Below the pieces are notes generated by a model that saw only the letters and a program-made list of their open reading frames with translations, searched no databases and was not told the origin of the DNA. From Rhizophagus irregularis (Eukaryota > Glomeromycota > Glomeromycetes > Glomerales > Glomeraceae): DNA of 64,000 bases. The translations under genes and the position numbers were made by a program. Within the stretch, counting starts at the first letter, position 1, and each line of letters starts with the position of its first letter. Positions 11,018 through 18,645 of this stretch are shown in pieces. The stretch is from assembly GCF_026210795.1 (NCBI RefSeq), contig NC_089445.1:3162001-3226000 (forward strand). The letters are read 5' to 3'.

Positions 11018-11768
11018 GTTATGAGGTCACGTTGTGCGTTTTATCAGGCTTACGTAATAGGTATTTTTTATACAACTTAGTAACTGGTTGTACTAACATA
11101 AATCACCAATTAGTAAATGCCTGTATATTGAAAATGTTTCATCGGTACACGAAATTTTGCATTTTCCATAAATGTTTTATAATCTTTGTTAAACTGCTAA
11201 AAATTTACATTATTGATCTACCATGTCTACCGAATTTTCAGTATTCTATAAAAGGTTAACACATCAAGTTGATCATTTTTAATACTTTTCGGTCGCGAGT
11301 CTGTATTCATCTTGAAATTTCCTACGATATGATAATCTTAAAAAACATATAACTAATAAATAATATTAACGTCCTAGTCAAAGTACTTATTACGTGTTGA
11401 TACTAATGATTATGTTGATGTGGCTGAGAAGTGTAAATAATTAGGAATTATTCTTAGTTACAATATACTGTCTATATATTTTTATTTATTTATTCTTTTT
11501 TTAAATTAGAAATCATCTTCTCTTCAATAAACGTGTCAAAAATACCCTTGTACGTTTTTACTTCGCCCACATTAATAACGCAATTTTACAAATGATTGCG
11601 GCTAAAATAATTATTAACATCAAAAATTTCGTATTTCCTCATATTGCTCTGCTCTTCAATTGTAAATTTTAACATAACTATGGCACAATATAGAAAAACG
11701 TCTTGTACACCTCCTTTACTTCGCCTTCATTGATTCATGAAATAGTGTTATTATAAAAAAAATTTTCT
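11018..11768. other. intergenic; contains a segment shared with 25.4 kb
   Basis: GTTGTACTAACATAAATCA at about 11088 recurs at about 25378 with related flanks (AGTAAATGCCTG against AGTAAATATCTG), indicating an old dispersed repeat. No gene recognised. Confidence 0.4.
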
Positions 11769-11776
11769 TATATAAA
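11769..11776 (+). promoter_or_regulatory. TATA box of the peptide precursor gene
   Basis: TATATAAA lies 57-64 nt upstream of the ATG at 11833. Confidence 0.55.
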
Positions 11777-11832
11777 CACGAGAAAGAGGTGAAAAAATTT
11801 CTTTAAACAAATTAACAAATACAAAATCAATA

Positions 11833-12088
11833 ATGAAATTCAAATGCTCATTGCTGATTTTCGCCTTTACTATTGTTTTAGCGAGTAAATAAATCATCAC
11901 TTTAAAAGAAATTTTTCTTTTTTTATTCATATTAATATTAAGGGTTCTTTTAATGATAATTTAAATTCACAGATGCAGCACCGTCATTTAAACGTAACGC
12001 GGACGCAGAAGCCCAACCCCCATGGAAACGTGACGCGGACGCAGAAGCCCAACCCCTGTGGTGGGGGATTAGTATCCATCGGTTGTAG
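11833..12088 (+). CDS. alpha-pheromone-like, Kex2-type peptide precursor (55 aa)
   Basis: Exon 1 is 11833-11884, the 88-nt phase-1 intron is 11885-11972 (GTAAAT...TTCACAG), and exon 2 is 11973-12088. Residues 1-18 are a signal peptide (MKFKCSLLIFAFTIVLAN), followed by AAPSF and a KR site (24-25). Two 12-residue units then follow: NADAEAQPPW, KR (36-37), DADAEAQPLW, with a tail WGISIHRL. The order signal peptide, dibasic KR, a run of X-Ala dipeptides, then a short peptide is that of yeast alpha-factor precursors. There Kex2 cuts after KR and a Ste13-type dipeptidyl aminopeptidase removes the X-Ala pairs. Predicted products would begin QPPW and QPLW. The two units are 36-bp near-identical DNA repeats (11990-12025, 12026-12061). 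Only two units exist and the last lacks a closing KR, so the array may be short or contracting. Processing is inferred. Confidence 0.72.
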
Positions 12089-12940
12089 CCGGTAGTAGCC
12101 GGATGGTTATACATGATCTGTGCACATGATTATTTTTCGGTAATTAGCTATTTTACCTATGAAAGTATAAATATATAAACAAATATAAGTAAATTGTGTA
12201 ATTAAACCTGAAAAATTTTTGGTCTGTTATTAAACTAAAAAAAATTTTTGTGTTAAATTATTTTTGGTAATTTTAAATTATCATGATGTATTCCTTTATT
12301 GCCAAATAAATGTTATAAAGTTATTTTATGTACTTTTAATTTTATTATTTGTTATAATAAACTAATAAGATACTACATTTTACTTACTTTCGCTATAATA
12401 GATTACGTATTTTATTAGTAAATATAACTAGGTAACGGTGACCGCTAAACTCCGAAGCGGGCGTCACGCTGCTCGTTTTCCCAAAGTGAAATCTTATTAT
12501 TGTTATATTTTGCAACGATTTGTAAACATTATCTTTATTGTAAAACTCAATCGTTAAAGTTTTTTATTGATAAATAGTTTAATAAAATAATTTAACATAA
12601 TTATAAATCAAATACCGAAATTAAATAATATGTAATTTTTGACTATTTGTAATAATAAATAAAATTTCGTTAAGATTTAATTATTGAAATTAATCGCTTT
12701 TCTTCAGAAAATCTCTCTTGTGACCTCTTACATTTTTTAATGCGTTGTAGTCTTTCAAACGAAAATGGCTTAAAAAGTACATCATTAAGAGCACGGTCCC
12801 TGGAAATTGCCACAATTTTGCGTTAAGATTTTAATAACGAAAATAAATTACACAAGATATCATTTATTATGTTTTTTCGTTTATTATTAATGAATCTTAA
12901 ATTACATGAAGAAATAATTTAAAAACAACTAAATTTATTA
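12089..12940. other. intergenic, nothing recognised
   Basis: AT-rich. A GC-richer sentence at about 12432-12485 (GTGACCGCTAAACTCCGAAG) shows no frame or pairing that could be interpreted. Confidence 0.4.
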
Positions 12941-17342: not shown

Positions 17343-18645
17343 TTAAATATCGAATTCGAATTCTCTAGAAACATAAACTGTGTAATAATAATAATAATAA
17401 TTAGTCTCTAAAAATATTTAATTTTATATACCAGGAAAGAGAATTTTTTAAAACAATAATAATCATAAGTAAATTTTACCTTGAACTTTTAAGCTTCTAG
17501 TAGATTCTACAGATTCTACCATTGCACTTAAAGAACCACTTTTGTATATGCTATGTGTTATTCTAGGTCCAATGTCTGTTGATATAATAGATTTAGTTTT
17601 ATTAAATGGCTCTTGAAAAAGTATATTCTCAACATTTTTTTGCAGTTTAGCTGCAGTTGGTCTTTTATTTGGATCCGAATGCCAACAGCTTTGCATTAAT
17701 TTAATATAATCTTCAGGTGCGTTTGTAACAATTGGAGGATGAAGACCATCACATATTTCAATAATAAGATCGGTATCATGATTTCGATCCCAAAATGGTC
17801 TTCTACCTGTCATTAATTCCCACATAATCATACCGAAACTATAAATATCTGAAGCTTTAGTATATTTTTGTCCTTGAAGAACCTCTGGTGCAACATAGGG
17901 AATAATACCATATACTTCATTATCCTCATCATCATTTAGTGATGATTTACTTAGTCCTAAATCACCTGTTGTCGCTAGTAATAAATTATCATTTTTCATA
18001 TCTATAAAAATGTTACCACTATGATAATCTTTGTGAATTACATTTGCGTCATGTATAGTTTTAAGCCCAAGTATCATATAATACAAGATTTGTAACTTTA
18101 TTCCCCAGTCCATATTGTAAAAATTATTGGTTATATAATTCGATAAGTCACCGTATTCGCAATATTTTGTGATTATCAAAAAATTCTGGGTAGTAGGAAG
18201 TTGGGTAATTCCATAATATGTGTTGATTATAAAATCCAAATGCTTACAACATTCACGACTCGAAACATAATTAAATATCTTGAGCTAAAAAATTAATATT
18301 ATTAAATTGTTTGTTTTTTTATTTGATTAATAATTAAAAAATTATAATAAGATGTTTTACCTCATTTAATTGATTAGAAGTTATATCTTTAGAATTAGAA
18401 AGTTCCTTGAGAGCAACTGTCATTTCTCCTTTACGTTGGTTCACATCATTCCAATTAGTTATTGGACCATTGATCCAAGTCGCTTTATAGATTTTACTAA
18501 ATCCTCCTTCGGCAATATATTCTACATCCTTAAATTTTTCGTAAGGAACAAATTCCATTCTCCCTTCTTTTCTAGTTAAAGTGTGTCTGATAAAATTATC
18601 AATAACATCATTTCCACTTAGAGGGATTGATTTTGTTTGGTTCAT
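17343..18645 (-). CDS. TKL-like protein kinase B, N-terminally short
   Basis: Exons on the minus strand: 18645-18361, 18284-17480, 17407-17343, giving 384 residues. Both introns are GT-AG and the frame closes on TAA. Compared with kinases A, C, F and L it lacks the first ~60 residues, including the CxxC...CxxC module. It starts MNQTKSIPLSGNDVIDNF, directly at the conserved linker. Kinase core motifs are all present: AEGGFSKIYKATW, VALKEL, IHKDYHSGNI, GDLGLSK, VAPEVL. The tail is reduced to one short exon ending SREFEFDI, so the usual chain of micro-exons has been lost or skipped. About 310 nt of exon 2 are nearly identical to kinase A, including synonymous sites. Probably active; loss of the N-terminal module may alter regulation. 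Confidence 0.85.

What the first reader, a model, noticed from the sequence alone, without database searches (positions are those of the whole stretch)
11833..12088. Unlisted spliced gene for an alpha-factor-like peptide precursor
Seen directly: a two-exon frame gives a signal peptide, then KR, NADAEA, QPPW, KR, DADAEA, QPLW and a tail. Known: yeast-type alpha pheromone precursors use Kex2 (KR) and Ste13 (X-Ala) trimming in exactly this order. Inferred: a very short secreted peptide signal in a fungal group with no observed sexual cycle. The 36-bp units and missing final KR suggest an array that changes copy number.
Basis: partly seen in the sequence, partly recalled or inferred. Interest (0 to 1): 0.88.

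Follow-up and report, generated by a model that had tools for sequence, protein, structure and literature searches.

The report
Fungal gene family for tiny peptides
This is one of about fifty related genes in a plant-root fungus that look built to release very short secreted peptides, cut the way yeast cuts its mating pheromone, with a fixed start and a fast-changing payload; the peptides probably carry signals, but none has been seen yet.

Summary
In detail: a two-exon frame at 11833-12088 encodes a 55-residue precursor with two KR-(N/D)ADAEA units. It is not alone. The window's genome holds at least 53 places, some partial, with the same signal-peptide exon or intron, on 19 contigs. Of 52 examined, 27 give an intact precursor with KR sites, 25 on stricter grounds. 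All 27 share upstream DNA and 21 of 27 a 3' flank, but the payload between changes: 6 of 127 close pairs share one. Payloads are mostly 2-4 residues; 30 of 47 end in F, W or Y against 10.8 in shuffles.

Kex2-like and dipeptidyl-peptidase genes are present. Ste2 gave no match, which does not prove absence. Alpha-factor-like processing is well supported; an alpha mating pheromone is not. R. irregularis Kex2 repeat proteins with Ste13 signatures are in print (PMC6339444), with a three-repeat minimum this gene would miss. I did not find the shared-leader, hypervariable-payload family in print, in capped searches. Expression and peptides remain unseen.

The parts
11743..11832 (+). 5' flank shared by the family, with a TATA-like TATATAAACAC at 11769-11779
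   Evidence: 88-97% identical to the closest paralog in 30-nt steps over the last 90 nt; upstream matches in 27 of 27 intact members; TATA position
11833..11884 (+). Exon 1: signal-peptide exon, 17 codons plus 1 nt (MKFKCSLLIFAFTIVLA)
   Evidence: dN/dS 0.38 (bootstrap 0.32-0.48) over 24 distinct exon 1 sequences of 26 intact members
11885..11972 (+). 88-nt intron, GTAAAT...TTCACAG (predicted)
   Evidence: intron lengths of intact members fall in all three classes modulo 3 and 27 of 27 hit a stop within 40 codons if unspliced
11973..12088 (+). Exon 2: end of signal peptide, two Kex2/Ste13 units, tail and TAG stop
11978..11989 (+). APSF pro-segment between the supposed signal peptidase site (ANA|AP) and the first KR
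   Evidence: Sequence; cut site inferred from the -3/-1 rule (recalled), no predictor run
11990..12025 (+). Unit 1: KR, NADAEA, QPPW
12026..12061 (+). Unit 2: KR, DADAEA, QPLW, no KR after it
   Evidence: exact family 24-mer at G000:C17:3174026
12062..12085 (+). Tail WGISIHRL, joined to QPLW
12105..12319 (+). 3' flank shared with the closest paralog (79% over 215 nt)
   Evidence: profile

Best explanation
The locus is most likely a working gene for a secreted precursor from which the fungus cuts very short peptides. A signal peptide sends it into the secretory pathway; a Kex2-type protease cuts after KR; a Ste13-type dipeptidyl peptidase removes the NA-DA-EA or DA-DA-EA dipeptides; a Kex1-type carboxypeptidase removes the KR left on the C-terminus, giving QPPW (possibly trimmed to PW) and a C-terminal QPLWWGISIHRL. 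It belongs to a birth-and-death gene family in which promoter, signal exon, intron, processing spacers and 3' flank are kept while the payload is replaced, much as in venom-peptide or cyclic-peptide precursor families (recalled comparison). The likely use is diversified extracellular signalling at the root or between hyphae rather than classical alpha-factor mating. Shown: open gene structure, family, shared processing signals, protease genes in the genome, constraint on the signal exon, payload turnover. Inferred: splicing, secretion, cleavage, trimming and signalling.
For: Structure. Family: 53 leader places on 19 contigs; reversed-pattern controls 0 against 63 and 39 hits. 27 of 52 leaders examined are intact with KR. 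Shared 5' flank 27 of 27, 3' flank 21 of 27. Against the closest paralog, 30-nt steps are 90-100% identical from +0 to +180, 43-55% over the payload (+180 to +240), 53-77% to +390, and 83-93% at +390 to +480. 6 of 127 pairs with leader identity of at least 85% share a payload after a KR, all six YGY. 30 of 47 distinct payloads end in F, W or Y, shuffled mean 10.8, 0 of 20,000 reach it. 110 of 140 segments after a KR begin with at least one X-A/X-P dipeptide, 70 with exactly three; leaving out the five big arrays, 44 of 48. In four YGY genes 64 of 64 segments ahead of a KR end in YGY while their codons vary, silently. Exon 1 dN/dS 0.38. Kex2 P-domain match E 1.3e-16 with HGTRCAG and GTSAAAP nearby; two DPP IV genes with GWSYGG; S10 carboxypeptidase matches.
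Against: No transcript, splicing or peptide evidence was available for this locus. 25 of 52 leaders examined fail the intact criteria (15 modelled without KR, 6 with KR but failing other points, 4 without a model), so any copy, this one included, could be a relic. My models rewarded KR motifs, so KR frequency in the intact set is partly by selection. Payload counts treat related paralogs as independent. Uniform YGY with silent changes could also reflect copying of units; KR constancy there is by construction. Some payloads are long (EVKQLHDRHLGR; the single tail IIEPWKPWNSWNLKPNVD), and one array (L032, EDFN) lacks the dipeptides in 26 of 28 segments. The Kex2 match covers 57 of 86 positions with a stop in the frame, probably an intron, and my pattern for its catalytic Asp found nothing. 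Kex1 was not told apart from other S10 carboxypeptidases. Ste13 might trim QP from QPLW (recalled specificity).
Confidence: 0.75

Rival explanations
1. It is an alpha-type mating pheromone precursor of a cryptically sexual fungus.
For: Same processing order; a Ste3-type receptor gene is present, as Halary et al. 2013 reported (PMC3834313, passages); QPPW/QPLW resembles the end of alpha-factors that end in GQPxW or GQPxY (recalled; the passages show GQ, GQPC and GQGCW endings).
Against: Payloads mostly of 2-4 residues that differ between close paralogs are not a conserved 9-14-residue ligand. No Pfam match for the window protein. No Ste2 match (control silent, so absence not shown). Dozens of different products do not fit one receptor pair. 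A text search that included GQPCW showed 0 uses of it in the 12 papers listed of 216.
Confidence: 0.08
2. The peptides act on the plant: short apoplastic effectors or mimics made in the root.
For: Kamel et al. 2017 (PMC5293756, passages) report R. irregularis Kex2-site repeat proteins with very short motifs mostly expressed in planta; a conserved leader with a variable payload fits host-driven turnover.
Against: I could not link those RiSPs to this family: the motif letters are in a figure file I did not see. No expression data for this locus.
Confidence: 0.35
3. The peptides are precursors of cross-linked or cyclic products (RiPP-like), the C-terminal aromatic residue being the linkage site.
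For: Aromatic end in 30 of 47 payloads; Le Marquer et al. raise cyclisation of the Tyr-rich R. irregularis peptides (PMC6339444, section 18); tyrosinase-domain matches are present.
Against: No UstYa (PF11807) match in the genome (control silent, so absence not shown). Some payloads end in L, N, D or V.
Confidence: 0.15
4. The family is mostly relic: a segmentally duplicating DNA unit whose open frames survive by chance.
For: 25 of 52 leaders fail the intact criteria; similarity extends into flanks.
Against: dN/dS 0.38 in exon 1; frame kept across introns of all three length classes and over arrays of up to 28 KR sites; uniform YGY with silent codon changes.
Confidence: 0.1

Closest known systems
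Kex2-processed repeat proteins (KEPs) with STE13 signatures in Rhizophagus irregularis (Le Marquer et al. 2019, PMC6339444)
   Same: Signal peptide, KR-separated units, XA/XP dipeptides after KR, Tyr-rich payloads; the YGY arrays found here are probably among them (inference; their table was not read)
   Different: Their pipeline asks for at least three repeats, so this two-unit gene and the single-unit members fall below it; the passages and sections I read do not describe a shared leader exon, intron and promoter or payload turnover
Ascomycete alpha-factor precursors
   Same: Order of signal peptide, Kex2 sites, Ste13 dipeptides and repeated payload
   Different: Payload mostly 2-4 residues and hypervariable instead of one conserved 9-14-residue peptide; very short pro-segment; large paralog family
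Dikaritin/ustiloxin-type RiPP precursors
   Same: Kex2-released short cores with aromatic residues (recalled)
   Different: No UstYa match found in this genome (not conclusive); XA-XA-XA spacers
AGL surface proteins of Glomeromycotina (PMC8786786, passages)
   Same: Conserved secretion signals with divergent mature part
   Different: GPI-anchored, glycine/proline/alanine-rich structural proteins, not cut into tiny peptides
Apidaecin precursors (Pfam PF00807)
   Same: Weak match in member L038 (E 0.013, 16.1 bits, cut-off 23.1); an Apidaecin label on a cluster of Rhizophagus, Diversispora and the ascomycete Trichomonascus in Umemura et al. 2020 (PMC7329392, passages)
   Different: Insect antibacterial peptides (recalled); match below the curated cut-off; a spacer resemblance only

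Membership tests
Ascomycete alpha-type mating pheromone precursor | Signal peptide, Kex2 KR sites and Ste13 XA/XP dipeptides in that order | tested here: met
   (signal peptide judged by eye, no predictor run)
Ascomycete alpha-type mating pheromone precursor | Conserved 9-14-residue mature peptide in repeats (definition from PMC10569646, passages) | tested here: not met
   Bracketed payload is 4 residues (2 if QP is trimmed); payloads differ between close paralogs
Ascomycete alpha-type mating pheromone precursor | Match to a Pfam alpha-factor model | tested here: not met
   0 families for the window protein up to E 10 and no alpha-factor model for the 7 relatives scanned, of 26 other intact ones. 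Two YGY arrays pass the Antistasin cut-off by summed scraps with no single stretch passing, taken as a repeat artefact
Ascomycete alpha-type mating pheromone precursor | Ste2-type receptor in the same species | tested here: inconclusive
   PF02116: no match, but the control genomes were silent; Ste3-type found
Ascomycete alpha-type mating pheromone precursor | Mating-type-dependent expression and activity on a partner | not testable with these tools
   No expression or bioassay data
KEP (Le Marquer et al. 2019) | Secreted protein with at least three similar units separated by Kex2 sites | tested here: not met
   Window gene has two KR and two units; 12 of 27 intact members have three or more KR sites
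KEP (Le Marquer et al. 2019) | STE13 signature after KR, as noted for R. irregularis | tested here: met
   NADAEA and DADAEA; 110 of 140 segments after a KR family-wide
Dikaritin-type RiPP | UstYa (DUF3328) enzyme encoded nearby | tested here: inconclusive
   PF11807: no match in the whole genome, control silent
SP7-like repeat effectors of R. irregularis | Sequence similarity to SP7 repeats | not tested

The most novel reading that the evidence does not exclude
An arbuscular mycorrhizal fungus keeps a promoter/signal-exon/intron cassette constant and swaps in a changing repertoire of 2-4-residue, aromatic-ended secreted peptides, giving a genome-encoded set of ultra-short messages, exchanged between hyphae or read by the plant, that could mark strain identity or host; the yeast alpha-factor processing route would then be an ancient delivery system used for something other than mating.
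Probability: 0.25. Interest if true: 0.88.

Novelty: new variant of a known kind. Interest (0 to 1): 0.62.

Why it matters
Peptide signals of arbuscular mycorrhizal fungi are poorly known (recalled), and Halary et al. 2013 found no peptide pheromone gene in R. irregularis (PMC3834313, passages). A gene family that names dozens of exact short peptides makes the question directly testable: each can be synthesised and assayed on roots and hyphae. It would also show that Kex2/Ste13 precursors can evolve like venom or cyclic-peptide families, with a fixed leader and fast payload turnover, and that surveys asking for three or more repeats miss many of them (15 of 27 intact members here have fewer than three KR sites).

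Tried and rejected
Alpha mating pheromone proper: rejected as best reading on payload length, turnover and lack of a Pfam match. Ustiloxin-type RiPP: weakened by no UstYa match, not excluded. RNA structure in exon 2: none (z 1.26). Tandem repeat finder did not report the 36-nt pair; found by direct comparison. Tyrosinase cross-linking: 6 domain matches exist but nothing links them to this family. A sequence-only covariance model of the leader was built but could not be run on this genome and enters no count. Relatives in other Glomeromycotina were not searched: the genome tool reports no relatives here, and I ran no scan of the prokaryotic, viral, metagenome, phage or plasmid collections.

Rows dropped or kept apart: the union of 53 used 40 of 45 rows (five short fragments left out), 37 of 38 (one intron fragment left out) and, of the 39, the one not already covered, chosen by eye; some of the 53 are partial. 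One search worked on fetched loci: 52 leaders, which leave out two of the 53 (L019, L067) and add one (L055 at 646). Four leaders (L021, L025, L026, L053) gave no model. Models L014 and L036 (introns of 172 and 52 nt) were dropped for the strict set of 25; with them the aromatic count is 32 of 49 against 10.4. Leader alignment A1 left out L019, L026, L027 and L033; A2 also L012. Pro-segment payloads were left out of the 6-of-127 count; SF, GSL and TL are shared between genes. The regular expression for intact genes fixes a few signal-peptide residues and so biases dN/dS down slightly. The count of silent changes looked only at YGYKR matches, so by itself it could not show changes of residue; one search was run to mend that.

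Full report
What is there. Exon 1 (11833-11884) encodes MKFKCSLLIFAFTIVLA plus one base; an 88-nt predicted intron (11885-11972) begins GTAAAT and ends TTCACAG; exon 2 (11973-12088) completes a 55-residue protein. Read without splicing the frame stops after 19 codons. After a signal peptide (judged by eye, likely cut at ANA|AP) come APSF, KR, NADAEA, QPPW, KR, DADAEA, QPLW, WGISIHRL. The two 36-nt units are 33 of 36 identical. Because no KR follows QPLW, the last product would be QPLWWGISIHRL.

A large family. A second leader as query listed 38, and a 35-place exon 1/donor pattern 39, with 0 for the reversed control. Merged, these give 53 leader places on 19 contigs, some of them partial; the tool warns that such counts are lower bounds. 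The 24-nt unit sequence occurs 63 times with up to 3 mismatches, control 0.

Gene models. Of 52 leaders in fetched loci, 48 gave a model and 4 none. 27 meet my criteria for an intact precursor with KR, 25 after dropping two with odd introns. Of the other 21 models, 15 have no KR and 6 have KR but fail another point. Intron lengths of the 27 fall in all three classes modulo 3, yet the exons stay in frame, and all 27 hit a stop within 40 codons if unspliced, which argues for splicing. Pooled pairwise dN/dS of exon 1 is 0.38 (bootstrap 0.32-0.48; 24 distinct sequences of 26 members). Many loci look decayed, so birth and death seems to be under way.

Constant frame, changing payload. Between the window gene and its closest paralog (L002/L005), 30-nt steps are 90-100% identical from +0 to +180, fall to 43-55% over the payload (+180 to +240), lie at 53-77% to +390 and reach 83-93% at +390 to +480 in the 3' flank. 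Across the 27, all share 5'-flank similarity with another member and 21 share 3'-flank similarity. Of 127 pairs with leader identity of at least 85% (of 300 pairs among 25 genes), 6 share a payload after a KR, all YGY. Two styles occur: arrays of one payload (YGY up to 24 times after a KR; EDFN/KDFN; QHY) and precursors whose payloads all differ (LVAV, ALAV, WGAF; AVAF, GVGF, VEY).

What the payloads look like. After removing X-A and X-P dipeptides in silico, 36 of 47 distinct payloads ahead of a KR have 4 residues or fewer, and 30 of 47 end in F, W or Y; shuffling residues gives 10.8 on average and 0 of 20,000 shuffles reach 30. Paralogs are not independent, so the figure is descriptive. 110 of 140 segments after a KR carry at least one dipeptide and 70 exactly three; without the four YGY arrays and L032, 44 of 48 carry at least one. 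L032 is the exception: 26 of its 28 segments have none. In the four YGY genes 64 of 64 segments ahead of a KR end in YGY while GGC/GGA and TAT/TAC vary, which fits selection on the payload but could also reflect copying of units.

Machinery. The genome has a partial Kex2-type P-domain match (57 of 86 positions, E 1.3e-16) with HGTRCAG and GTSAAAP nearby in separate frames, though my pattern for the catalytic Asp found nothing; two DPP IV genes with GWSYGG; S10 carboxypeptidase matches in which Kex1 was not singled out; and one Ste3-type receptor gene. Ste2 (PF02116) and UstYa (PF11807) gave no match, but the control genomes were silent for both, so absence is not shown.

Families. Pfam found nothing for the window protein up to E 10. 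Among seven relatives scanned, two YGY arrays pass the Antistasin cut-off by summed scraps with no single stretch passing, and L038 has a sub-threshold Apidaecin match; I take these as repeat and spacer resemblances.

Literature. Le Marquer et al. 2019 (PMC6339444; passages plus sections 9 and 18) report that R. irregularis has a high number of KEPs, most with STE13 signatures, Tyr-rich, with a pipeline minimum of three repeats. Kamel et al. 2017 (PMC5293756; passages) report Kex2-site repeat proteins, one group mostly expressed in planta. Halary et al. 2013 (PMC3834313; passages) found STE3 but no peptide pheromone gene. The co-inoculation study PMC7490403 (passages) found no upregulated pheromone gene. 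Umemura et al. 2020 (PMC7329392; passages) list a Rhizophagus/Diversispora/Trichomonascus cluster labelled Apidaecin. I saw no description of a shared-leader, variable-payload peptide family in this fungus in the listings (25 of 38 shown; 12 of 12; 20 of 150; 20 of 33; 20 of 2,120; 2 of 2; 2 of 2; 5 of 5). The library holds open-licence papers only and I read no supplementary files, so single members may well be listed there.

Reading. The gene most likely makes short secreted peptides by the alpha-factor route. Calling it an alpha pheromone goes beyond the evidence. The closest known kind is the KEP with STE13 signature; what looks new is the family view: one leader cassette, at least 53 loci, very short, mostly aromatic-ended payloads that turn over. 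Function (hypha to hypha, to plant, or a modified product) is open and is directly testable with synthetic peptides and existing RNA-seq.

Noticed in passing
L061 (G000:C3:3197500-3198500, minus strand): A separate Kex2/Ste13-like array with about 33-residue Tyr/Lys/His-rich units (KRDALAEAHDYKEYDDYYNKYDKYHKKHHKSSY and variants); no shared leader was found in the fetched piece.
   Followed up: no
L062 (G000:C20:1899700-1900700): YGY units followed by a long run of KRQEE units in one open frame.
   Followed up: no
L023 and L027 (G000:C7, two places about 0.9 Mb apart): Same leader and intron, same predicted protein in both, but exon 2 has no KR; possible reuse of the leader.
   Followed up: partly
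L001 1197-1288 and several places upstream of L002: A roughly 92-nt block in the 5' flank is repeated several times upstream of the closest paralog.
   Followed up: no
window 17463-18284, minus strand: Open frame that looks like a protein kinase by eye; no family search run.
   Followed up: no
G000:C15:3883445-3900266: Four tyrosinase-domain matches in a cluster of long open frames.
   Followed up: no
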